This document shows, piece after piece, positions 30,910 to 41,873 of a stretch of DNA of 51,777 bases. The notes below the pieces were generated by a model. That model was given only the letters and a program-made list of their open reading frames with translations. It made no database searches and was not told the DNA's origin. Source of the DNA: Nodosilinea sp. P-1105. Lineage in GTDB: Bacteria; Cyanobacteriota; Cyanobacteriia; Phormidesmidales; Phormidesmidaceae. Both the position numbers and the translations under genes were made by a program. Every line of letters begins with the position of its first letter. The stretch's first letter is position 1. The stretch is taken from assembly GCF_012911975.1 (NCBI RefSeq), contig NZ_SMDQ01000040.1, forward strand, positions 1 to 51,777. The letters are read 5' to 3'.

Positions 30910-30985
30910 TGTCACGATTTACTCAGGATTGCTATACCCTAAGCAATGATCGGATCACAGGGGTAGCCCATTGCATCTGCCATCG

Positions 30986-33900
30986 ATGAGCATGGACAAC
31001 TTTCATGACGTTTTTATGTCCTATGGACGGCCTGATAGCCAAGAGTTTGTTATCCAACTGAGTCAGCGACTGGCCGCAGCTAAGCTTAAGGTTTGGGTCG
31101 ATCTCACCAGCATTCCCCTGGGGGTCGACTATCAGCAGCAAATTAATCGCGATCTGGAAAGGGCTGACAATTTCCTGTTTGTCATTTCTCCCCATGCCAT
31201 CAACTCGCCCCACTGCGCCATCGAACTGGACCAGGCGCTGCGCTGCCACAAACGCATCATTCCTCTGCTGCATGTTAAGACGATTGACCGTGACACCTGG
31301 CAGCAACGCTACCCTCAGGGCACCGAAGCTGACTGGCAGACCTTTGTGGCAGCGGGTAGGCAATCTAGTTTAGTCAATATGCATCCGGCCCTGCGCAAAA
31401 TTAACTGGGTGATGGCCCTGGGGCAGGACAAGCCGTCGGCGGCGGTTGTCAATGACATTCTAGAGCTAATCCAGCGGCAGCGTTCCTATGTGCGACAACA
31501 TACCCTATGGCTGGTCAAAGCTCTGGAGTGGCAACGTCATCAAAAGCAAAGCCAGTTCTTGCTGGTGGGGGAAACGCGACAGCAGGCGGAAACCTGGCTT
31601 AAAACCCGCTTTGCAGATCAACAGGCCCCCTGTATACCCACCGATCTGCAGTGTAGTTTCATTACTGAAAGCTCAAAGAATGCCCATAACCTGATGACTC
31701 AGGTGTTCTTGGCTTACGCCGAGGAAGATAAGTCGGTCATGGAGCAGGTGCAGCGATTTCTGTGCCGCCAGGGCATCACCGTCTGGACCAACACAACCAG
31801 CTTGCACACTGGCGAAGACTTTTTGGCATCCATCGACCGGGGCATCGAAGCGACCGATAACCTGATTTACCTCTTGTCTCCAGCCTCGGTAGATTCAGGC
31901 TATTGTCAGCATGAGCTGGACTATGCCCTGGCCCTGAATAAACGAATTATACCCATTTTGGTCAGCCCGATGGCTGGTGATCAATTGCCCGCTGGGTTAC
32001 AGGAGTTGCATTATATTGACTGGTCCCATGGGAGTGAACAGAGCAAAGGGCTAGATGACACAGAGCTGCTGAAAATTTTGTATCAGGACAAGACCTACCA
32101 CCGGCAGCACAAATGGCTACTGACCCAAGCTCTGAAATGGCAACGGCAAAACCAAAACCCTAGCATCTTGCTGCGGGGGTATAACCTACGTCGCTCCGAG
32201 GCCTGGTTGAAAGTGGCTCAAACCCGGCAGCAGCAACCCCCGACCTCCTTGCAGGTTGCCTTCATCCAGGCCAGCTTACGCCAACCTGAGTCACCCTATT
32301 TAGATGTATTTATTTCGTATTCTCGGACTGATTCTGAATTTGCCCGGCGGCTCAATGATGCGTTGCAGATTCAGGGTAAGACCACCTGGTTTGACCAAGA
32401 AAGCATTGATGCTGGGGCTAACTTCCAGCAGGAAATCTATCGCGGTATTGCCAGTTCCAATAACGTTGTCTTTGTGATTTCCCCGAGTTCAGTGAATTCC
32501 CCCTACTGTGCTGAGGAGGTTGCCTACGCAGCTGGGTTGAATAAGCGGTTGGTGACGGTGCTCTACCGGCCTGTGGCCGCAGAAACATTACCGGCTCCGC
32601 TAAAGACCATTCAATGGATTGACTTTAGACGCCACCAGGACGACTTTTACAGTCACTTTAGCGAGCTGGTGAGAACCCTGGATATGGACCGGGAGCATGT
32701 TCAGCACCACACCAAGTTGACCCAACGGGCGATGGAGTGGGCCGCGCAAGATCAGCATCCCGATTTGCTGTTGCGGGGGAGTGAATTCGCGATCGCCCAG
32801 ACCTGGCTACAAACCGCCCAGCACGATCAAAAACAGCCACCTCCCACTGATCTCCAGCGAGACTTCCTAGCCACCAGCCAGGCCAGTCTGGCCGCTGAAG
32901 CCCGACAAGAGAACCGTCGCCAGGTGATTTTGCGATCGCTGCTAGGGTTGATCAGTCTGGCGTTTTTGGCTGCCGCTGGACTTGGCCTTTGGGCCTTTTC
33001 CCTCTGGCGTCAGTCAGAGATTGCCCAACTACAAGCCCTGGTTAGAACATCTAATGCGCTATTTTTAGCGGAACAAAAGCCAGAGGCACTGGTCACGGCC
33101 TTAAAAGCCGGACAAAACCTAGAGCGTACTGCCGAAGCTAACCAGGCATCAGTGCTGAGCATGTTACAGCAGGCGATCTACGGCATTAGAGAACTGCGAC
33201 AGATAACGAACCATGGCGATCGGGTGAACGACGTGGCCTATGTGCCCGATGGGGAAATTTTTATCAGTGTCAGTGATGACAGCACCGTTACCCTTTTCCG
33301 TCAGGATGGCACTCTGATTCAGGCATTGAACGATCATCAAGAGCGGGTGCAACGGGTGAGCGCTAGTCCTGATGGGCAGCGTTTTGCCACCGCCAGCGCT
33401 GATGGCATCATCAATATTTGGGCCAGGGATGGTCTAGTGCTGCAATCGTTAACAGAGCATCAGGCGGCGGTAACCGGGCTTCACTTTAACCCCAACGCTG
33501 ACGACGATGCCGATGGCACTACCCCAGCTCTGGTTTCAGCGGGGGCTGACGGCACCATCAACCTGTGGACCCCTGACGGGCAGCTCATCCGCAGCTTTGA
33601 CGATCCATCGGGGAGGGTAAACCAGGTGATCTTTAGCCCCGCCCACGGTAATTTTTTGCACGACAATCGGCCCACCTTGGCCACCGCCGGGGCAGACGGG
33701 AATCTTCGGCTGTTTAGTCTGGATGGCGAGTTGCTACAAACCTTTAGGGGCCATCGGGATGCTGTCAATGATGTTGCCTTTAGCCCCGATGGCGAAGTTC
33801 TGGCCTCTGCCAGCCGCGATCGCACCGCTAAGCTGTGGCACCGTAACGGTCAAGAACAATACGCCTTGATCGGCCACGACAACGAGGTTAATGCTATTAC

Positions 33901-35107
33901 CTTTGCCCCTGATGGTCAAACCCTGGTCACCGCTGGAGAAGACAGTAACGTTAGACTTTGGAACCGGGCAGGACAGGATGTGCAAAGTCTCAGCGGTCAT
34001 TTAGCTGGGGTTAGAGGCATTGCCTTTGCCCCCGAAAGCGATATTCTGGTCACGGCCAGTGCCGACAACAGCCTCAAACTCTGGGATCTGGCAGAAGAGC
34101 CGCTGCAAACCCTCAAGGGCCATAGGGATTGGGTCCTGAGTGTGGCCTATAGCCCTGATGGCAGCACTATTGCTACGGCTAGCGGCGATCGCACCGTTCG
34201 GCTCTGGAACCCCCAGGGAGAACTACTGGCCACCCTGGAGGGGCATACTGGCTGGATCAATACCGTGGCCTTCAGCCCCGACGGTCAATACCTGGCCACG
34301 GCCAGTGACGATCAAACAGCCCGGCTATGGAGTCTGGATGGGGAAACCCTAGCTATTTTCCAGGGGCACCAGGACCAGGTGAGCGACCTTGCCTTTAGCC
34401 CCACCCATACCGGCTCTTCTCCGGGGCAAAGCCCCTTTTTAGCCACCAGCAGCGCCGACCAGACTATCAAACTGTGGACCCAGGACGGCACGCTGTTAAA
34501 TACCCTGGTGGGTCACCATAGCTGGGTCCGTAGCGTTACCTTTAGCCCCGATGGCGACACCATCGCTTCCACCGATGCTGATCAGGCCCTGAACCTGTGG
34601 AGCCGGGATGGAGTGCTGCTTCAGTCTTTCCGAAACCATGACAACTGGGTACGAGAGGTGGTCTTTAGCCCCGATGGTCAAACTCTGGCCACCGCCAGTG
34701 CCGACAACACAGCCAAACTCTGGGACCGCAGTGGTAACGTCCTAGCTACTTTGATGGGGCACAACTACTGGGTGGTTGGGGTAGCTTTTAGCCCCGATGG
34801 GGAGACCATAGCCACTGCCAGCGCCGACAACACTATCAAGTTGTGGAACCGCCAAGGAGAAGAACAGCAAACCCTATATGGCCACCGGAATTGGGTGGTA
34901 GACCTGGCCTTCAGCCCCGACGGCCAAACCCTGGCCAGTGCCAGTGGTGATCAAACCGTTATTTTGTGGAACTTATCGGCCTTCACCCTAGAGGCGCTGC
35001 TAGAGCGGGGCTGTCGTTGGCTGATGGATTTTGGCGGGGACGATCGCAATCCTGAGATGGCTGATGTCCTGCGGACTTGCCAGCAAAATACTGACCCAGA
35101 ACTGTGA
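30986..35107 (+). CDS. Triple-TIR, single-membrane-segment, 14-blade WD40 protein
   Basis: A 1373-residue protein from the ATG at 30986 (a TTG at 30971 and an ATG at 30992 are alternatives). Three TIR domains lie at about 5-160, 235-350 and 438-555. Each has the aromatic/Asp start (FMSYGRPD, FLAYAEED, FISYSRTD) and ends its core in C-x-x-E with the Glu at about 80, 310 and 511, the position of the catalytic Glu of NAD-cleaving TIRs. After each TIR comes the same helical spacer (AL-WQR...LLRG...WL). A membrane segment lies near 650-672. A coiled ALVTALKAG region then leads to 14 WD40 repeats (about 740-1335), which would make two seven-blade propellers, and a short Cys-containing tail. TIR domains often act in anti-phage death or signalling. 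Function here is inferred; no Thoeris partner was seen nearby. Confidence 0.92.
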   Translation: MSMDNFHDVFMSYGRPDSQEFVIQLSQRLAAAKLKVWVDLTSIPLGVDYQQQINRDLERADNFLFVISPHAINSPHCAIELDQALRCHKRIIPLLHVKTIDRDTWQQRYPQGTEADWQTFVAAGRQSSLVNMHPALRKINWVMALGQDKPSAAVVNDILELIQRQRSYVRQHTLWLVKALEWQRHQKQSQFLLVGETRQQAETWLKTRFADQQAPCIPTDLQCSFITESSKNAHNLMTQVFLAYAEEDKSVMEQVQRFLCRQGITVWTNTTSLHTGEDFLASIDRGIEATDNLIYLLSPASVDSGYCQHELDYALALNKRIIPILVSPMAGDQLPAGLQELHYIDWSHGSEQSKGLDDTELLKILYQDKTYHRQHKWLLTQALKWQRQNQNPSILLRGYNLRRSEAWLKVAQTRQQQPPTSLQVAFIQASLRQPESPYLDVFISYSRTDSEFARRLNDALQIQGKTTWFDQESIDAGANFQQEIYRGIASSNNVVFVISPSSVNSPYCAEEVAYAAGLNKRLVTVLYRPVAAETLPAPLKTIQWIDFRRHQDDFYSHFSELVRTLDMDREHVQHHTKLTQRAMEWAAQDQHPDLLLRGSEFAIAQTWLQTAQHDQKQPPPTDLQRDFLATSQASLAAEARQENRRQVILRSLLGLISLAFLAAAGLGLWAFSLWRQSEIAQLQALVRTSNALFLAEQKPEALVTALKAGQNLERTAEANQASVLSMLQQAIYGIRELRQITNHGDRVNDVAYVPDGEIFISVSDDSTVTLFRQDGTLIQALNDHQERVQRVSASPDGQRFATASADGIINIWARDGLVLQSLTEHQAAVTGLHFNPNADDDADGTTPALVSAGADGTINLWTPDGQLIRSFDDPSGRVNQVIFSPAHGNFLHDNRPTLATAGADGNLRLFSLDGELLQTFRGHRDAVNDVAFSPDGEVLASASRDRTAKLWHRNGQEQYALIGHDNEVNAITFAPDGQTLVTAGEDSNVRLWNRAGQDVQSLSGHLAGVRGIAFAPESDILVTASADNSLKLWDLAEEPLQTLKGHRDWVLSVAYSPDGSTIATASGDRTVRLWNPQGELLATLEGHTGWINTVAFSPDGQYLATASDDQTARLWSLDGETLAIFQGHQDQVSDLAFSPTHTGSSPGQSPFLATSSADQTIKLWTQDGTLLNTLVGHHSWVRSVTFSPDGDTIASTDADQALNLWSRDGVLLQSFRNHDNWVREVVFSPDGQTLATASADNTAKLWDRSGNVLATLMGHNYWVVGVAFSPDGETIATASADNTIKLWNRQGEEQQTLYGHRNWVVDLAFSPDGQTLASASGDQTVILWNLSAFTLEALLERGCRWLMDFGGDDRNPEMADVLRTCQQNTDPEL

Positions 35108-35247
35108 CTCAACACAGACACGTCTAATTCACAACAGGCCTAATGTAAGACGCCTGCGTCACGCTATGGCCACCGTTAAAGCTGAAATTCCTTTGCCATT
35201 ACAACCGCCGTTGTATTTCCTGATGATACTTACTTGATATAGACGGT

Positions 35248-35790
35248 CTACACAAATGGGGGGTTTGAGTTTTTGGGTGATTGTTTAGAAGCTACTGTCC
35301 AAGATAGGCTTCGCATTTTAGTGGATTCAACGACTACGGGATGCGGATCAATGGGTTTGATTAATGTTCTTAGTTTGAGCTGTATATTTGAAGGCTCAAA
35401 AGCGCGTGGAAATAACTTCGAACTCTTCAAGGGTTGTTCAAGATGCAACACAACTCGTAGTTGCTGACCCTTTACAACTTCTTCTGCAAATTGGCATTCG
35501 TCTGAGTTTGAGGCATTAAACTTTGCAGGCAACATTGCAGCCAGGGTACAGAAAACTTTCTGGGCAACTTCATCAACCAGATCTATAACCTTAGTTCGTC
35601 GCGATTGGCGATAATCCTTGACCTCAATGAACCAAATCATTTGACCTTCAACAACTAAAAAGTCAACGGCTTTAATGCCATCCCACATTGCTGAGAACTG
35701 ATTACGGTAAAAGGCCCAGTCATCATACTTGCTGACCTTACAAGAGTCAGGGAAAGTGAATATCAAGTCATCAACTTCGATGCTTATCAT
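35248..35790 (-). CDS. Small PD-(D/E)XK-like protein, partner of adjacent AAA ATPase
   Basis: A 180-residue protein. Its central block AVDFLVVEGQMIWFIEVKDY has Asp43, then Glu56-Val-Lys58 after a beta strand, which is the spacing of a PD-(D/E)XK nuclease core. The C-terminal half is strand-rich (LRVVLHLEQP, IQLKLRTLI) and I cannot place it. It starts two bases after the ATPase stop, so the pair is translationally coupled and probably forms one system. The base composition is AT-rich compared with the flanking chromosome. It converges on the TIR-WD40 gene with 140 bp between. Which known system this belongs to, if any, I could not determine. Confidence 0.68.
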   Translation of the reverse strand: MISIEVDDLIFTFPDSCKVSKYDDWAFYRNQFSAMWDGIKAVDFLVVEGQMIWFIEVKDYRQSRRTKVIDLVDEVAQKVFCTLAAMLPAKFNASNSDECQFAEEVVKGQQLRVVLHLEQPLKSSKLFPRAFEPSNIQLKLRTLIKPIDPHPVVVESTKMRSLSWTVASKQSPKNSNPPFV

Positions 35791-35792
35791 AC

Positions 35793-36842
35793 TTAGACTC
35801 CGCTAAGCATAAAGCGCTCAGATTGTTCAAGCTCTTCGTCAAGGGATACTATTTCACCAATCTCATCAACGACGTCTCCTTGTCGAACTTCTACGCTATC
35901 ACCTGAGAAATGCAGACCAAAGAATTTTGACTTGAAAGGAGTACTTTTTTCAGTATCAATCAAAATCTCAAGCTCACGCAGCAAAAATAAGCTGTGGGTC
36001 GCCAGAAACACCTGAATACCTGCGTTACTCAAGCTAATAATACTCTGAGCGATCTGTTTGATCAGGCGTGGATTTAAATTTGCTTCTGGTTCATCCCAAA
36101 ACAAAAAGCCCCTATCTAGTAACACACCTGTTGCAATTAAACGAGCTAACATTGCCAGCTTACGTTGTCCTTCTGCAACAAGGGGAATTTCAAATCGGCC
36201 ATTTTCAGTCTTTAAGTAGAAACGTCCATTTTTGTCGAGTATGATTGAGCCTCCCATTGCCAACTCAAGAGGTACCAGTAATTCTTGAATACGTTTCTCT
36301 TTAGTACCTCGTTGTAAGGGAGCACCAAGAAGAATACATGTATCTCGCCAGGTTTCCTCAAATTCAAGATAGTGACTTTCATAAACGGAAACGAAATTTG
36401 GAAAAATACTTAGCAACTCTCGCGTAGGCAGATAAACAGAGGCTGCATCAAGCCAGAATTCTGGGACTTTTTCGAGGGAAACTTCTGTTTTGCTATTTGT
36501 AGCAAAGCTAAAGCCAAAATCATACTGAGCATTCTCAAAACCCAATCTAATATCACATCTTGCACGCCCCTGCTTGCGCCGGGCTAACCGCCCAAGAGAT
36601 TCGGGCTGAAATACGCCAGTAATCTTGTCCGCCAGACGGGCTTGAAGCAAGGTTTTGGTAGGTGAGTTGCTGGATGGCTTTTTGCCTTCCTCCCAACTAG
36701 TTGAAAGGGCTGAATAGGCTATTTTTAGCAGATGAGTTTTTCCGGTACCATTTTCACCAACAATGACGTTCAATTGTGGTGAGAACTGAAGGTTAGCCTC
36801 AGGGAAGACTGTAAAATTGCGGATATTTAAGCTACTCAACAT
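35793..36842 (-). CDS. AAA ATPase of the RecF/OLD-like ABC-ATPase group
   Basis: A 349-residue protein. It starts with the typical [18 protein letters not shown] lead-in and Walker A GENGTGKT (29-36). A Q-loop-type region follows, then a signature-like [15 protein letters not shown], Walker B in [16 protein letters not shown], and the switch His in [12 protein letters not shown]. These are the features of AAA_15/AAA_21 proteins, which in defence modules act as DNA or damage sensors coupled to a nuclease. There is no C-terminal TOPRIM domain, so it is not an OLD or GajA protein by itself; the coupled downstream PD-(D/E)XK-like protein may supply the nuclease. GGGAG lies six bases before the ATG. 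Confidence 0.85.
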
Positions 36843-37013
36843 GAATTACTCCCAGATGCCAACTCCAGCTCATCAGGCAAAGTGCTATATCACATAGTAA
36901 CAAAATCCCTCAAAGTAGGCGTGAATTGAGGTCTGCTCACCTGGAAGCAATGCTCACTAATTTGGAAACAAGAGGTTCGTGTAAGTAATTCAGGTAAATG
37001 TCCACCCTACCAG

Positions 37014-38477
37014 CTAAATTTCCAGCTCTCGAATAAAGTAAAAGCGATCTTTGCCATCGCGGTCCTTTTTTCGCCCAAGATAACCCGCTAGCGGAGAAGA
37101 CAGCTCTATTAAAATCTCATAGTATTCTTGGCGACTCAAAGAGGGAGTATGTTTGGAAACAATATACACAGCATGGAGAGAGTCGACATTAGCATCATCC
37201 GCTTTAGCATCTTCTAAATAATGTCGAATCTGACTAACGATAGAAGATCGTAATTCTAACTTTGATCTGACTTTTTGGATATATTTATCAATTTCATCAT
37301 CGGCACGACCATCAGCCAGATATTCCTTAAGTTGGAATAGGTCAACTGAACCAGGATATTTATGATGGAGTTGAACGAGATTTTCTAGGGTCCTTGGATT
37401 AATGATTGACATACCATGTACTTTCGCAGCTTTGTCTAATTGGGAGGTAGGTGTCCCAGGACCAATAATGAGTTTTGCGGCGTTTCTATAGGTTTCTTTA
37501 TCAGCTAACTTCAAGGTGCCTAAATTGAGAAGCTGCACCGCAGTATCATTGGGAATTTTCTTCCCAGCTTTACACTCGCCAATCAGAGTATAGGGTTTGG
37601 AACAGGCTAAGTCTAAACCACCGGCCCCTCCCTTATGAGCAAGTTCGATTTTAAAGCCTAGATACTGCAAACTAGCTCGTACTGCGATTTCAAAATCTGT
37701 CCCTGCTTGGTAATTGCTCTTATTTCCATCTTCCTCTAAAGTTCGATTTCCCAAGGCAGATATCTCATTGATCCATGCAAGGCTTGGATCTAGTCTGTTA
37801 ATAGGTTTATGGCTGTTCCAACCTAAGAGAGTACGAGCTTCGTGTCTTAAAACTGCACCTGCAAAAGTTGGTTTTGTGTGCATGGCAAGAGCAGCATCTA
37901 ATTTTTCCAACTCAGGATGCGGTGGCGGTTCAAGTTGTTCCAGACGTTGATACTGGCGAGTAAATTCCTGATCATCTAAAACTGGTGAAATATCATCAAC
38001 TGAGAGAGATTTTGGTAATTGTATGAATCGCCCGTTTCTATCAGGACTAACCCAACTTGGCTGTGTTTCAATTGATTGGTTTAGTCGATAAACACGCAGT
38101 GAAGCCAAGAAAAATCTATGACTTTCATCAACAATGCTTTGTAGCCCTTCGACCGTCCAAACTGTTATTTTTGAAAGTATCTTCAGATCTTCTTTTTCGC
38201 TATATATTTTACACTCCTTAAACTTTGCCCAGGCTGTAATGGGAGGTGTTAAATCTTTAAAGAGAGACTTTTCTGGATTTAGGGTCGACAGAAATTCCTG
38301 CCGATAGAATCGCTTTGCGTATAGGCTATTTTCTGTACTTAAAACAGGACAAAGTAAGAAGCAGGGAGCACAGCGAAATGCTTTTGGTATCGCAACGATA
38401 GTGCGCCCTTGAATCAAAGCTTCTAAGTCATGTACTGGTACGCAAAGAGCTTTAGAAATTAGAAAGGTTTTACTCAT
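37014..38477 (-). CDS. Two-part protein: DUF1802-like N-terminus plus Mrr-type PD-(D/E)XK nuclease
   Basis: A 487-residue protein. Residues 1-135 resemble DUF1802 by memory: an ALIQGRTIVAIPKAF start, then a LLCP segment, AWAKFKEC, and the ending ILSKITVWTVEGLQ...LASLRVYRL. Residues 255-345 carry a PD-(D/E)XK core: Glu263 in GTDFEIAVR, Asp289 in GGLDLAC, and Glu301-Cys-Lys303 in LIGECKAGKK. This matches Mrr-like restriction endonucleases. The C-terminal 80 residues form another small domain. It starts six bases after the P-loop ATPase stop, so it belongs to that operon. Predicted role: DNA cleavage directed by the ATPase; this is inference. Confidence 0.75.
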   Translation of the reverse strand: MSKTFLISKALCVPVHDLEALIQGRTIVAIPKAFRCAPCFLLCPVLSTENSLYAKRFYRQEFLSTLNPEKSLFKDLTPPITAWAKFKECKIYSEKEDLKILSKITVWTVEGLQSIVDESHRFFLASLRVYRLNQSIETQPSWVSPDRNGRFIQLPKSLSVDDISPVLDDQEFTRQYQRLEQLEPPPHPELEKLDAALAMHTKPTFAGAVLRHEARTLLGWNSHKPINRLDPSLAWINEISALGNRTLEEDGNKSNYQAGTDFEIAVRASLQYLGFKIELAHKGGAGGLDLACSKPYTLIGECKAGKKIPNDTAVQLLNLGTLKLADKETYRNAAKLIIGPGTPTSQLDKAAKVHGMSIINPRTLENLVQLHHKYPGSVDLFQLKEYLADGRADDEIDKYIQKVRSKLELRSSIVSQIRHYLEDAKADDANVDSLHAVYIVSKHTPSLSRQEYYEILIELSSPLAGYLGRKKDRDGKDRFYFIRELEI

Positions 38478-38483
38478 AACGAG

Positions 38484-40376
38484 TCATCCTGCTAATAGAA
38501 GCTCTTCAGCATCATCACTGTCTGATTCAGATACTTCAGCAACAGCCCGCTCAAATTCTTCATCTTCATCATTAACTTCAACTGGCACTTCGCCAGATGG
38601 ATCACTCAAAATCTCCCTGATTAAAGGATTTTCAGTAATGATATCTTTGTGTCGCTCTAAAAACTGATCAAATGCGTCTTGATCTAAATCATAATCTTCG
38701 AGAGACTTGAAAACTTCTCGAAGTGCAATTAATGGTCTAATATCATCTGCTTGAAAACTAGCCCATTCGCCTCCCATTTCCTTGGTCAATTTCCTTAGAA
38801 AGGTATTCGCAGTGCGCCACCGTGGAGGCTCAGGAATTGCTTTTGAGCGTACAAGGCACCCCCTGGTTAAGTCAAAATCTTTGTACCAAGTCAGGCGCTT
38901 AACTCCTGCACCTACAGTCCTTCCATGACAATTTTGTATCACTCCAACGCCAATTTTAACTTTTTCATTATTTTCTTTACCAATGATTCGAAGTTGTATA
39001 TACCCATTGCTTTTATATTTTGGGGAAACTTCTCTATCCACTGATTCAATAGTCACACTTTCGAGGGTTTGACCAATGAGGTTATGGAAGGCAAAAGCAA
39101 GAGAATTGGAGATTGTCTGGTTATTGTCAAGCAAAACTTCCAAATTCGATTTGATCTCCTCATAAACCTCACTTACTTCTTCTACAGGATCGACGGGCAC
39201 CGCAGGAAACTTTTCGGCGCATAGTTTCAGAAATTCTCGGACTGTCGGTTTCTCCTTGCCAATTTCTCTCAGTTCGTCTTCATCAAAAGGATATAGCTCA
39301 TAAGGCGGCTCTAGATTATGTATTTCGTAAAATCTATCAAGCCAGCACCTTACTAACTCAATGACAGTATTTTCATTGAGTGGGCGAAGATCAATTTCCA
39401 ACTCAGCAATTCTATCTTCCACTGCTTCGTTTCCAGGCAGAGCTCTAACCTCTTGTTGCCAAGTACTAGGATACATGGCAGTCACCAAAACACCACGTCT
39501 TAGATTGTTATAGACATCCTTGCCAAGACTAGAAACGACCATCGCCCTAGTGAATCCACTTACAGAAACAATATCTTCATCCCCACATTCAGCACCATCT
39601 AGCTCATCAAAGCAAATAACTGGTGTCTTATAATGACTAATAAAATTAATGATCTGCATAGCCTTATTAAAGGCATATATCTCCTGCTTACTTTCACTAA
39701 TCTCAGGTAAACCTAATACATTAGCTTGATATTCTGTGATTTCTTTACCTGATAGCCAGTTAAGGGCATAGGGTGCATGGACAGCAGATAAAGTCCAGAG
39801 TAAAGCTTTAATGATATAAGGATCTTCAACGCCAATATTTAACTGAAAAGCCTTGGTGATAATCCTTTCAATGATTTGAGGGTCTTTAGCTACAACTTTT
39901 GGGAATAAAGCAATTAGCTGGTGAGGTGAAAAATTCCTTCCTAATGCATGATTCAGAAAATCTGTAACAACTTCTTGACACTGCATTACTTCCTGATGGC
40001 CAGGCTTCCTTAAACTCACTACTACTTCTTGTAAAAAATGGTGCTTTACAGCACTGAGGTTTCCGTATTCGCTCAAATATATAAAGACACCATTTCCATT
40101 AGTTCTTAGGCTCTGCCTAATACGACCTAATATATGAGTTTTTCCTCTCCCTTTTGAAGCAAGGAAGGCAATTCCAAGTGTAGAAACGTTTTCTTCTTCA
40201 ATTTCTTTTACGGCATCTAAAACTGCTTTAGATGCATGACCATTTATAGATGGAACGTCAGGAAGTTCGTTAGCCCAAATTTGTTGGGTTTTAACTACAA
40301 AGTGTCGACTAAAGGGATTATGGGTTTGAATGATACGATTGATTGCGTCTAGGGAAGTGAAGACAGACATATGCAT
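38484..40376 (-). CDS. P-loop ATPase with uncharacterised C-terminal domain
   Basis: A 630-residue protein. An N-terminal helical lead precedes Walker A ASKGRGKT (73-80) and Walker B VICFDE (253-258), followed by an arginine-containing VTAMYPSTWQQEVR sensor-like strand. This suggests a KAP/ORC-like or STAND-like ATPase. After a helical middle region (about 330-430), residues 440-560 form a distinct alpha/beta domain (YIQLRIIGKENNEKVKIGVG, then LTWYKDFDLTRGCLVRSKAI) that I cannot assign. The tail is strongly acidic. It lies between the winged-helix-like gene (56 bp) and the nuclease (6 bp). Base use is AT-rich. The gene order suggests a sensor-ATPase-nuclease module, but I could not match it to a named system. 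Confidence 0.72.
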   Translation of the reverse strand: MHMSVFTSLDAINRIIQTHNPFSRHFVVKTQQIWANELPDVPSINGHASKAVLDAVKEIEEENVSTLGIAFLASKGRGKTHILGRIRQSLRTNGNGVFIYLSEYGNLSAVKHHFLQEVVVSLRKPGHQEVMQCQEVVTDFLNHALGRNFSPHQLIALFPKVVAKDPQIIERIITKAFQLNIGVEDPYIIKALLWTLSAVHAPYALNWLSGKEITEYQANVLGLPEISESKQEIYAFNKAMQIINFISHYKTPVICFDELDGAECGDEDIVSVSGFTRAMVVSSLGKDVYNNLRRGVLVTAMYPSTWQQEVRALPGNEAVEDRIAELEIDLRPLNENTVIELVRCWLDRFYEIHNLEPPYELYPFDEDELREIGKEKPTVREFLKLCAEKFPAVPVDPVEEVSEVYEEIKSNLEVLLDNNQTISNSLAFAFHNLIGQTLESVTIESVDREVSPKYKSNGYIQLRIIGKENNEKVKIGVGVIQNCHGRTVGAGVKRLTWYKDFDLTRGCLVRSKAIPEPPRWRTANTFLRKLTKEMGGEWASFQADDIRPLIALREVFKSLEDYDLDQDAFDQFLERHKDIITENPLIREILSDPSGEVPVEVNDEDEEFERAVAEVSESDSDDAEELLLAG

Positions 40377-40432
40377 CTCACGAATGGAATGCCAACAGAT
40401 ATATTCGGAAATTAGAAGTAAGAATTAATTCT

Positions 40433-41086
40433 CTAATTATTTAAGCGCTTAGCATAGCAGCGAAGTTTTCCAAAGCTTGTGGTTATTGAGTCTTCAATTT
40501 TATCGAATGAACTATCTTCTACACTGCCTTCTAGGAATTCGAAAATATCATTGTTTTGCATTTCTAGCATCCATTCATTGAACTGGGAGCGAGTGACGCG
40601 ATCACCAATCTGTCGCCGGATGCGGTAGATTGGCACAAAGTTATCTAGATTGTAGTCTCGATTAAGTTGATCAAAAGTCTTGGATGCCAACCGTTTGAAT
40701 TCCTCATATGAGTCAATTGGTGCAACAGCCTCGCCCTGATCATTTATCTTAGATAGGTCAGATTTTCCCTGTTTCCGTATCCAGCCTAGCAGGGCATTGA
40801 CGGTTCTAGCACCGACATTACTATCATATTCAAACTCTTGATCCAGCAAATGCTGATTCAGCAAGGTTAAACCAGAGGCCGTGAGAGAAAACTCATTGTC
40901 GGAGATCGTAATTGCCCCTGCGGCATCTAACTTCTCGATGATCGGTTGAAAGTCTCCAGATCTCTCGCTTCCGCGTGTTGCAAACGGCATCAGTTCTCCT
41001 TTTCTTATACTATCTCCACCTAAAGCCCATAATGCAAGAAGAAAGCGAGTTTGAGCATGGTTGACATCATTATTCCTTAAAGCCAT
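40433..41086 (-). CDS. Winged-helix-like protein, first gene of ATPase-nuclease operon
   Basis: A 217-residue protein from the ATG at 41086, preceded by AAAGGGA. A GTG at 41152 would add 22 residues and is less likely. Residues 1-80 look like a winged helix: TRFLLALWALGGDSIRKGEL, a following recognition-like helix, then the wing AGAITISDNEFSLTASGLTLL. The middle is helical, and the C-terminal third (IYRIRRQIGDRVTRSQFNEW, then NNDIFEFL) looks like a second small winged helix. It may bind DNA to regulate the operon or act as a DNA-recognition or bridging subunit. I cannot name the family. Confidence 0.62.
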   Translation of the reverse strand: MALRNNDVNHAQTRFLLALWALGGDSIRKGELMPFATRGSERSGDFQPIIEKLDAAGAITISDNEFSLTASGLTLLNQHLLDQEFEYDSNVGARTVNALLGWIRKQGKSDLSKINDQGEAVAPIDSYEEFKRLASKTFDQLNRDYNLDNFVPIYRIRRQIGDRVTRSQFNEWMLEMQNNDIFEFLEGSVEDSSFDKIEDSITTSFGKLRCYAKRLNN

Positions 41087-41573
41087 CGATAGTCCCTTTG
41101 AACTAGTTTTGGGATTTTTCTGCACGGAAAATATGATTGTGATCTGAATCACCTTCAGGCTATCCGTGTCAATCCAGAGATTTTCTTCAATTATTTACAA
41201 ACTATCTAGATAAAATCAGAACGAAACACCTCTAGTATTTTCTTTAAGCAAGCTTATCGAAAACTTTAAGTATTTGCCAATCTCGCAGGTAGTAGCAGAG
41301 CGATCGCAGGTCTCTTGCAAGTTGAGTTGAGGAAACTCAGCTTGATTCCCACAGGGCACCTCGAAAATCCTATCTGCAAGAATTCTGTTTTTAGCCACCT
41401 TTGCCTGAAAATGTTATTTCTCCATTTATGTCAAGTCGTTGTTGAGGGTTTCAGGTGAAAACAGTGAATAAGTAAGCGATATCAGGAGTTTCGCCTCGAC
41501 GGTACTGAATCGGAATAGCCTGTTGGCCGTAGGATTAGGAATAGGAATAGACAGATTAGACGCTCAAGTAACA

Positions 41574-41610
41574 GTAGGTGTCGGGTTTCACTCCGTTCCC
41601 CCCAACCTAC
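41574..41610. repeat. Degenerate cyanobacterial palindromic repeat
   Basis: GTAGGTGTCGGGTTTC at the left and CCCCCCAACCTAC at the right can pair imperfectly (GTAGGT/ACCTAC at the ends). The wording is close to the GTAGGTTGGGTT...AACCCAACAC palindromes that I recall as widespread in cyanobacterial intergenic DNA. Only one copy is visible here. Confidence 0.5.
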
Positions 41611-41689
41611 AGTGTTCAAGGTTTACGTTTGCCCAATACGCTTGAACTCCCAGCGGACTTGGCGTACTATACCTTGCGGGGAATGGTTT

Positions 41690-41765
41690 CTAGGCGGGGA
41701 AGAGAGGAGCGGCAACTCCTCAAGTCCCCTGAGACATCCCTCTTATCGTGGGTAAGTGAGATGCC
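41690..41765 (+). ncRNA. Folded segment resembling the 3' (omegaRNA-like) end of a TnpB-type transposon
   Basis: GGGGA (41696-41700) and TCCCC (41725-41729) enclose a GAGGAG-CGGCAA-CTCCTC stem-loop (41704-41721). This is followed by a GAGACATCCC segment with CCC (41738-41740) facing GGG (41750-41752). The order and wording resemble what I recall of the conserved noncoding 3' end of IS605/IS1341-type elements in cyanobacteria, where the transcript guides TnpB. No tnpB gene is present, so this would be a relic. Assignment rests on memory and is uncertain. Confidence 0.35.
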
Positions 41766-41873
41766 CTTAGGAGCCATTCTAAAAGCTAGCGTCTTGTTTT
41801 ACCTTCCCTTGGGACCGCTAGATAAGTTCCCCGTTTTCCTCAACCGAAAACGGAGACACCCGTATGTGATTGA

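What the first reader, a model, noticed from the sequence alone, without database searches (positions are those of the whole stretch)
37014..41086. Unassigned three-gene module: winged-helix-like protein, P-loop ATPase, DUF1802-like/PD-(D/E)XK nuclease
Three tightly spaced AT-rich genes read as one operon: a 217-residue winged-helix-like protein, a 630-residue ATPase (Walker A 73-80, Walker B 253-258) with an unassigned C-terminal domain and acidic tail, and a 487-residue protein joining a DUF1802-like part to an Mrr-type nuclease core (E263, D289, E301-x-K303). A recognition/ATPase/nuclease combination in a compositionally foreign block next to other defence-type genes suggests an anti-phage or anti-plasmid system. 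I could not match the gene set to BREX, DISARM, Wadjet, Zorya, Lamassu or Septu. The fusion of a DUF1802-like domain to a nuclease is not one I know.
Basis: partly seen in the sequence, partly recalled or inferred. Interest (0 to 1): 0.85.

Follow-up and report, generated by a model that had tools for sequence, protein, structure and literature searches.

The report
Cyanobacterial ORC-like ATPase nuclease defence operon
Three neighbouring genes in a cyanobacterium form a widespread but untested, probably DNA-cutting defence unit (a DNA-binding-type protein, a ring-type ATPase and a nuclease), apparently of a kind mentioned once in print, whose nuclease part is exchanged between relatives independently of the ATPase.

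Summary
Three minus-strand genes (window 37014-41086) sit in a 6.7-kb block of 41.5% GC inside 57-59% GC DNA. They travel together: 35 of 38 fetched loci with a strong ATPase relative carry all three, same order and strand. The neighbouring HEC-02 pair is not part of it. The ATPase models as an ORC/Cdc6/TnsC-type AAA+; the nuclease protein as DUF1802 (probably ASCH/PUA-like), a FokI/HindIII-type core and a C-terminal winged helix.

The three window proteins match no PADLOC model, but the set fits one sentence of PMC10853773: Orc/Cdc6 genes in operons with a REase-ASCH fusion and a DndG-like wHTH protein. So it is probably a member of a predicted, unnamed kind; I saw no functional test.

New here: at one chromosomal site in relatives the module decays or is replaced by catalogued defence families; and two nuclease types are spread over the ATPase tree as if at random (10 changes; shuffles 10.3) yet split the nuclease tree once. 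Best reading: a stand-alone, ATP-dependent, perhaps modification-sensing restriction system. Function is unproven.

The parts
40433..41086 (-). WH: 217-aa winged-helix-like protein, first gene
   Evidence: start codon by alignment with 32 relatives; winged-helix Pfam hits only marginal
38484..40376 (-). ATPase: 630 aa, ORC/Cdc6/TnsC-type AAA+ with an alpha/beta C-terminal domain and acidic tail
   Evidence: model pLDDT 86.1; VIA Z 14.5 to archaeal ORC2, 239 residues, 3.8 A
39201..40241 (-). AAA+ core of the ATPase (residues about 46-392)
40137..40160 (-). Walker A stretch (residues 73-80)
   Evidence: G76, G78, K79 invariant in 34 rows
39603..39620 (-). Walker B stretch (residues 253-258)
   Evidence: F256, D257 invariant in 34 rows; residue 258 is Glu in 29, Gln in 3, Arg in 2 of 34 rows
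38757..39122 (-). Possible inactive REase-like insert of the ATPase (residues about 419-540), alpha-beta-beta-beta-alpha-beta order
   Evidence: secondary structure of the model only; profile comparison with the module's own nuclease negative; inconclusive
37014..38477 (-). NUC: 487-aa DUF1802 + nuclease + winged-helix protein
37950..38477 (-). DUF1802 domain (residues 1-176), probably ASCH/PUA-like
   Evidence: Pfam 3.7e-20; best Foldseek hits of the NUC model are ASCH domains, E 8e-3, prob 0.99, without printed query range; profile test against two ASCH proteins negative
37353..37715 (-). Nuclease core (residues about 255-375) with E263, D289, E301-x-K303
   Evidence: invariant in 36 of 36; VIA Z 13.9 to N.BspD6I, 12.6 to FokI, 10.9 to HindIII; Mrr_cat at E<=0.1 in 23 of 36 members, best 5.1e-5
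37017..37265 (-). C-terminal winged helix of NUC (residues about 405-487)
   Evidence: VIA Z 11.0, 69 residues, 1.4 A to Zur
35138..41873 (.). AT-rich acquired block (41.5% GC) holding the module and the HEC-02 pair
   Evidence: no strong ATPase match in 25 other genomes of the genus
35793..36842 (-). Neighbour, not part of the module: HEC-02B-type AAA_21 ATPase
   Evidence: PADLOC 1.4e-154; a close relative beside the module only in the window and L004 among the loci (the other hits there are weak, 5e-6 to 1e-4)
35248..35790 (-). Neighbour, not part of the module: HEC-02A
   Evidence: PADLOC 2.2e-66; only in the window and L004

Best explanation
A stand-alone, ATP-dependent restriction-type defence system. 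Proposed mechanism: WH and the winged helix of NUC bind DNA; the ORC/TnsC-like ATPase assembles on DNA and, depending on its nucleotide state, licenses the nuclease; the DUF1802 (probably ASCH/PUA-like) domain inspects bases for a modification or invader-specific feature; the FokI/HindIII-type core of NUC cuts the invading DNA. Shown here: the three genes, their joint conservation, the folds of the ATPase and nuclease models, conserved catalytic residues, recent acquisition in the window genome, turnover at a site shared with defence genes in relatives, and exchange of the nuclease domain. Inferred: complex formation, DNA as target, the ASCH nature and base reading of DUF1802, and self/non-self discrimination without a methyltransferase of its own (a type IV-like mode).
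For: Joint conservation in 35 of 38 loci. Folds: ORC/MuB/TnsC-type AAA+, FokI/HindIII-type nuclease and wHTH. Catalytic residues invariant in 36 of 36. Recent gain: no E<1e-30 match in 25 other genomes of the genus or 8 more of the family (a few of them only 83-87% complete); absent from the stretch read beyond the same flanking gene in 15 of 15 relatives; 41.5% versus 57-59% GC. Turnover at the mdh-pgi site: of ten module-less stretches read, six keep module remnants (L112, L118, L119, L122, L123, L126) and four hold genes matching PADLOC: PDC-S28 2e-276; two reverse transcriptases near RT-Protease_XI (about 1e-137, RT part only); a helicase with partial DpdE/DrmD similarity (4e-17). Single modules lie near a type IIG enzyme (L068) or an NsnA-like protein (L053). 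Tandem copies in L108 and L109. Nuclease type scattered over the ATPase tree as at random. A matching set is inferred to be counter-invader in PMC10853773.
Against: No experiment. In family f7 the nuclease is present in 86 of 118 genomes (my count at E<1e-50), often at one site: high for a defence system and also compatible with a housekeeping role. No phage record and no plasmid record holds the module. ASCH rests on Foldseek E-values of 0.008-0.1 (no NUC hit at E<=0.001, no aligned range printed); no Pfam ASCH hit in 36 members; profile test against two cyanobacterial ASCH proteins negative. The ATPase's top Foldseek row is a mitoribosomal protein, ahead of Cdc6. Self-protection is unexplained.
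Confidence: 0.7

Rival explanations
1. A cyanobacterial DNA-metabolism complex (repair or replication control) rather than immunity: the ORC-like ATPase loads the nuclease on the cell's own DNA intermediates.
For: High prevalence and shared site in family f7: 86 of 118 genomes. Related ATPases occur with PD-(D/E)XK/FtsK-alpha/FtsK proteins or fused to exonuclease domains.
Against: No strong match in 32 of 118 f7 genomes, with remnants or defence-type genes at the same site in several; absent from the window's genus apart from this genome; nuclease-type reassortment.
Confidence: 0.15
2. Abortive-infection system: the ATPase senses a phage product and unleashes NUC on the cell's own DNA or RNA.
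For: RdrA, a ring-forming protein, is among the best ATPase matches (Z 13.8; its role in phage defence is recalled); only three genes recur, so no methyltransferase is part of the set.
Against: Nuclease core resembles DNA endonucleases that cut or nick at sites; winged-helix parts suggest DNA target recognition; no sensor domain identified.
Confidence: 0.2
3. A Tn7/Mu-like transposition or targeting module (TnsC-like ATPase with a TnsA-like nuclease).
For: MuB and TnsC are among the best ATPase matches (Z up to 13.4).
Against: Only three genes recur, none a transposase; no clear end repeats (only short imperfect ones) and no tRNA around the block; ORC rows score about one Z unit higher than TnsC.
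Confidence: 0.04

Closest known systems
Orc/Cdc6 + REase-ASCH fusion + DndG-like triple-wHTH operons (PMC10853773, one sentence; passages read)
   Same: ORC/Cdc6-type ATPase, REase joined to a probably ASCH-like domain, separate wHTH-like protein, one operon
   Different: The term search of that text shows no 'cyanobacteria', and the library search for DUF1802 does not list this paper. Whether the authors' set includes these loci was not checked (supplements not readable). The triple-wHTH nature of WH is untested here.
Orc/Cdc6-coupled HerA/FtsK capture systems (PMC10853773)
   Same: Related ATPase and wHTH partner; sister loci here carry [3'-5' exo]-PD-(D/E)XK-FtsK-alpha-FtsK proteins
   Different: No HerA/FtsK motor belongs to this three-gene set; a DUF1802/REase/wHTH protein stands in its place
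wH-fusion modification-dependent (type IV) endonucleases, e.g. PUA-wH-HNH and PD-(D/E)XK-wH (PMC11037411, passages read)
   Same: Winged-helix and, in some, PUA-superfamily domains on a nuclease; methyltransferase genes rare beside them
   Different: Those studied are NTP-independent single proteins (NTPase fusions are mentioned but not characterised there); here a separate ATPase and WH are conserved
BREX BrxC/BrxD and DUF499 systems (PMC12839542, passages read)
   Same: ORC/Cdc6-clade ATPase as core; weak BrxC_BrxD hit in 2 of 34 ATPase members
   Different: No BREX model hit among 34 ATPase and 36 nuclease members at E<=0.01
DndFGH / Ssp
   Same: FtsK part of a sister locus matches PADLOC SspH (1e-68)
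   Different: The module's ATPase and nuclease members match no Dnd/Ssp model at E<=0.01

Membership tests
Orc/Cdc6 + REase-ASCH + wHTH operon (PMC10853773) | ORC/Cdc6-clade AAA+ ATPase | tested here: met
   VIA Z 14.5 to ORC2 and 14.4 to a fly ORC/Cdc6 chain, 239 and 236 residues; Foldseek E 4.8e-5 to Cdc6, rank 2; by fold, not by a clade tree
Orc/Cdc6 + REase-ASCH + wHTH operon (PMC10853773) | REase fused to an ASCH domain | tested here: inconclusive
   REase fold clear (Z 13.9); ASCH by Foldseek only, E 8e-3, prob 0.99; no Pfam ASCH hit in 36 members; profile test negative
Orc/Cdc6 + REase-ASCH + wHTH operon (PMC10853773) | DndG-like triple-wHTH protein in the operon | tested here: inconclusive
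Orc/Cdc6 + REase-ASCH + wHTH operon (PMC10853773) | iREase between AAA+ and C-terminal wHTH (stated for the HerA/FtsK-linked relatives) | tested here: inconclusive
   Secondary-structure order fits; profile comparison with the module's own nuclease negative
HerA/FtsK capture system | HerA/FtsK motor in the operon | tested here: not met
   NUC follows the ATPase directly in 35 of 38 loci and no fourth gene recurs as part of the set; no FtsK Pfam hit among the NUC members
BREX | PglZ and a BrxX/PglX methyltransferase with BrxC | tested here: not met
   No BREX model among the hits of 34 ATPase and 36 nuclease members; set of three genes
Catalogued systems of PADLOC 2.0.0 | a model match for the core genes | tested here: not met
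   0 matches for the three window proteins at E<=1; in ATPase and NUC relatives only weak scattered hits, best 2.5e-5 and 1.7e-5; WH relatives not scanned
Type IV (modification-dependent) restriction | cleaves modified DNA, spares unmodified host DNA | not testable with these tools
   needs assays

The most novel reading that the evidence does not exclude
DUF1802 is an unrecognised ASCH/PUA-type modified-base reader found widely in cyanobacteria, and this ATP-dependent restriction system evolves mainly by swapping its catalytic domain behind a fixed ATPase, as an escape from phage-encoded nuclease inhibitors or as a change of cleavage specificity.
Probability: 0.25. Interest if true: 0.72.

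Novelty: new member of a known kind. Interest (0 to 1): 0.52.

Why it matters
It puts a concrete, complete, widespread gene set behind a one-sentence prediction, gives DUF1802 (one paper, by its title on soil microbial gene networks, found in the library searched) a testable role, and supplies natural pairs of loci that differ mainly in the nuclease domain, suited to asking what that domain contributes to defence range. If it restricts modified DNA it may also bear on transformation barriers in filamentous laboratory cyanobacteria (inference).

Tried and rejected
PDB by sequence: nothing for NUC at E<=1, one hit for WH at 0.21, nothing better than 0.015 for the ATPase. VIA rows for NUC mostly spanned residues 233-487, so they neither support nor exclude ASCH for DUF1802; Foldseek printed no query range, so placing the ASCH hits on DUF1802 is my inference from its helix-after-strand-1 beta pattern and size. 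ASCH proteins proved rare in the phylum sample (five places in 4 of 59 genomes); a profile comparison of DUF1802 with two of them was negative, probability 0.1 (the other three places not used). Profile comparison of the ATPase insert with the nuclease was negative. Viral contigs: no relatives with A1 or A2. Plasmids: one weak ATPase hit and two weak Staphylococcus nuclease hits; phages none. Promoter and terminator scans at chance level. Considered and rejected: BREX, DndFGH, HerA/FtsK system proper, Tn7-like module. L004 (planctomycete MAG, 99.5% identical over 7.1 kb) was not counted as independent; it may be a misbinned contig (inference). Distribution outside Cyanobacteria was not measured: the one genome-contig scan, with the window ATPase alone, found only L004. 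Not in print: DUF1802 searched, the gene set; only the library of these tools.

Full report
OBSERVATION. The window holds three minus-strand genes at 37014-38477, 38484-40376 and 40433-41152, with gaps of 6 and 56 bp. The first gene is best read from the ATG at 41086 (217 aa), because relatives align from there. Block 35138-41873 has 41.5% GC, the flanks 56.7% and 58.7%. Downstream lie HEC-02B and HEC-02A genes (PADLOC 1.4e-154 and 2.2e-66).

CONSERVATION. Of 292 genomes drawn from the phylum, 63 have an ATPase match at E<=0.001, 43 of them (own included) at E<1e-30 by my count. I fetched 38 loci from 37 of the other 42; G060, G064, G066, G091, G103 and second places in G118 and G207 were not fetched. 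WH is present in 36 of 38 and NUC in 35 of 38, in the order WH-ATPase-NUC on one strand. L073 is cut by the contig end on the nuclease side; L063 and L064, more distant, have the ATPase alone. Close relatives of the HEC-02 pair accompany the module only in the window and L004, so it is a separate neighbour. In the clustering every other gene cluster occurs in 13 or fewer of the loci; the frequent ones that I looked at belong to one neighbourhood shared by related genomes, and I did not name them all.

DOMAINS. The ATPase model (pLDDT 86.1, pTM 0.79) matches ORC2 and Cdc6 (VIA Z up to 14.5), RdrA (13.8), MuB and TnsC (up to 13.4), over 213-270 residues at 3.8-5.5 A; the top Foldseek row is a mitoribosomal protein, E 2.2e-5, then Cdc6, 4.8e-5. 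Residues 419-540 run alpha-beta-beta-beta-alpha-beta-alpha-beta, as a REase fold would, with no ExK motif visible in the consensus. A profile comparison gave no support for homology to the module's own nuclease, so this stays open. The NUC model (pLDDT 84.3 but pTM 0.55, so domain arrangement is unsure) has DUF1802; a nuclease core like N.BspD6I, FokI and HindIII (Z 13.9, 12.6, 10.9); and a C-terminal winged helix (Z 11.0, 1.4 A). ASCH domains are the best Foldseek rows for the whole model (E 8e-3 to 0.1, prob mostly 0.9-0.99; nothing at E<=0.001; an ORC/Cdc6 chain ranks second). No aligned range is printed; I place them on DUF1802 because its strand-helix-strand beta pattern fits the PUA/ASCH description (PMC7641849, passages). 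A profile test against two ASCH proteins was negative. E263, D289, E301 and K303 are invariant in 36 of 36. Pfam at E<=0.1 finds Mrr_cat in 23 of 36 and DUF1802 in 36 of 36. DUF1802 also exists as a stand-alone protein: 38 of 146 phylum genomes have DUF1802 in one form or the other, and the window genome has both.

SISTER SYSTEMS. Weaker ATPase relatives often sit behind a wHTH-like protein and before a protein made of PD-(D/E)XK, FtsK-alpha and FtsK motor, in several cases with a 3'-5' exonuclease; others are fused to an RNase_T-type exonuclease domain. In some sister loci no such nuclease protein was found next to the ATPase (for example L079, L083, L088, L089). The window genome has one complete set on another contig (L071). 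The FtsK parts of two tested sister proteins match SspH and mad8 models. These fit the Orc/Cdc6-HerA/FtsK capture systems of PMC10853773 (passages read). [quoted passage not shown] That is the closest description of this module that I found. DUF1802 is named in one paper of the library, on forest-soil gene networks (search listing only).

HISTORY. In the window genome the module looks like a recent gain: no match at E<1e-30 in 25 other genomes of the genus or 8 others of the family (a few are 83-87% complete). In 15 of 15 relatives it is absent from the stretch read beyond the DUF58-like gene (name by eye) that flanks it here (about 9-10 kb in 13 of them, 2.7 and 3.8 kb in two). L004 is 99.5% identical over window 42262-35137 and then departs, so one edge of the block is variable. 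In family f7 (Nostocaceae by my inference) 86 of 118 genomes hold NUC strongly. In 12 of the 41 loci a pgi-like gene lies in the fetched stretch with the module, in 7 of these also an mdh-like gene (names by eye). Of 32 f7 genomes without a strong NUC, eight have both flanks within 6 kb. I read all eight, plus G404 (mdh side only) and G349 (flanks rearranged). Remnants of the module persist in six of the ten (L112, L118, L119 with only 13 residues, L122, L123, L126). L118 holds a PDC-S28 protein; L119 and L120 a defence-type reverse transcriptase with a Schlafen-like gene (the latter by eye; PADLOC gave none or one weak unrelated hit for it); L126 a helicase with partial DpdE/DrmD similarity. 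L112 carries transporter-like genes (by eye), L121 a 1060-aa ORF without PADLOC match; in L122, L123, L124 and L125 I saw no large unexplained insert. Other genomes have tandem modules (L108: two full plus a nuclease remnant; L109: two full plus a WH-like remnant), an internal deletion (L117) or orphan nuclease C-termini (L110, L111, L113). Gain, loss, decay and replacement by defence-type genes is what defence loci show, and is the strongest evidence for function here.

NUCLEASE EXCHANGE. The nuclease region has two types: A, with an NYQ or NYE motif, and B, without. In pairs with similar ATPases the types can differ: L052/L058 (ATPase 81%, nuclease domain 42%) and L068/L069 (77%, 46%); while L052/L059 share 90% in the nuclease and 72% in the ATPase. 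On the ATPase tree of 31 loci (18 A, 13 B) the type changes at least 10 times, no fewer than in shuffles (mean 10.3, sd 1.4; 53% of 1000 at or below 10), but once on the nuclease-domain tree. Caveats: quick trees with some long branches, and the motif lies at the edge of the columns of the nuclease tree. L047 and L050 share the same chromosomal site and 89% DNA identity through WH, ATPase and NUC to codon 235, then lose it; L047 and L048, both type A by motif, keep it to the gene's end.

MECHANISM. Most likely an ATP-dependent, modification- or structure-sensing DNA restriction system without its own methyltransferase. Complex formation, base reading by DUF1802 and self-protection are inferred. 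The wH-fusion nucleases of PMC11037411 (passages read) are precedents for domain logic only.

VERDICT. A real, widely conserved operon and probably a defence system; probably a member of a predicted, uncatalogued kind; the reassortment of its nuclease domain and its turnover at a site shared with defence genes are the new parts.

Noticed in passing
window 30971-35107: TIR-domain plus WD40-repeat protein of 1378 aa (Pfam TIR_2 2e-78, WD40 3e-142) directly next to the AT-rich block; the identity of L004 with the window ends before it.
   Followed up: partly
L071:2366-7333 (own genome, another contig): A complete sister set in the same genome: wHTH-like protein, ORC-like ATPase, PD-(D/E)XK-FtsK-alpha-FtsK protein.
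   Followed up: partly
L070:827-11915: Tandem sister locus with three ORC-like ATPases, two wHTH-like proteins and an exonuclease-PD-(D/E)XK-FtsK protein.
   Followed up: no
L091:9508-12870: 1121-aa variant with a protein-kinase domain between the exonuclease and the FtsK parts.
   Followed up: no
L061:4240-6690 and L065:7548-9998: ATPases of 817 aa with an extra C-terminal domain of about 150-200 residues; that of L061 has a weak SeqA C-terminal match.
   Followed up: no
A1 rows L042, L068, L069, L063, L064: The residue after Walker B Asp257 is Gln (3 rows) or Arg (2 rows) instead of Glu in 5 of 34 ATPases, so hydrolysis may not be needed in all.
   Followed up: partly
L119:2095-4767 and L120:2272-4583: A Schlafen-like gene (by eye) next to a reverse transcriptase of the RT-Protease_XI/Toprim kind occupies the module's site in two genomes.
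   Followed up: partly
for example L069, L108:7262-8052, L115:4795-6912, L118:2732-3901: A pair of small genes (about 105 and 120 aa, the latter with a DTGFTG motif that looks aspartyl-protease-like by eye) recurs, often in tandem, next to the module or its remnants (clusters in 7 and 5 loci).
   Followed up: no
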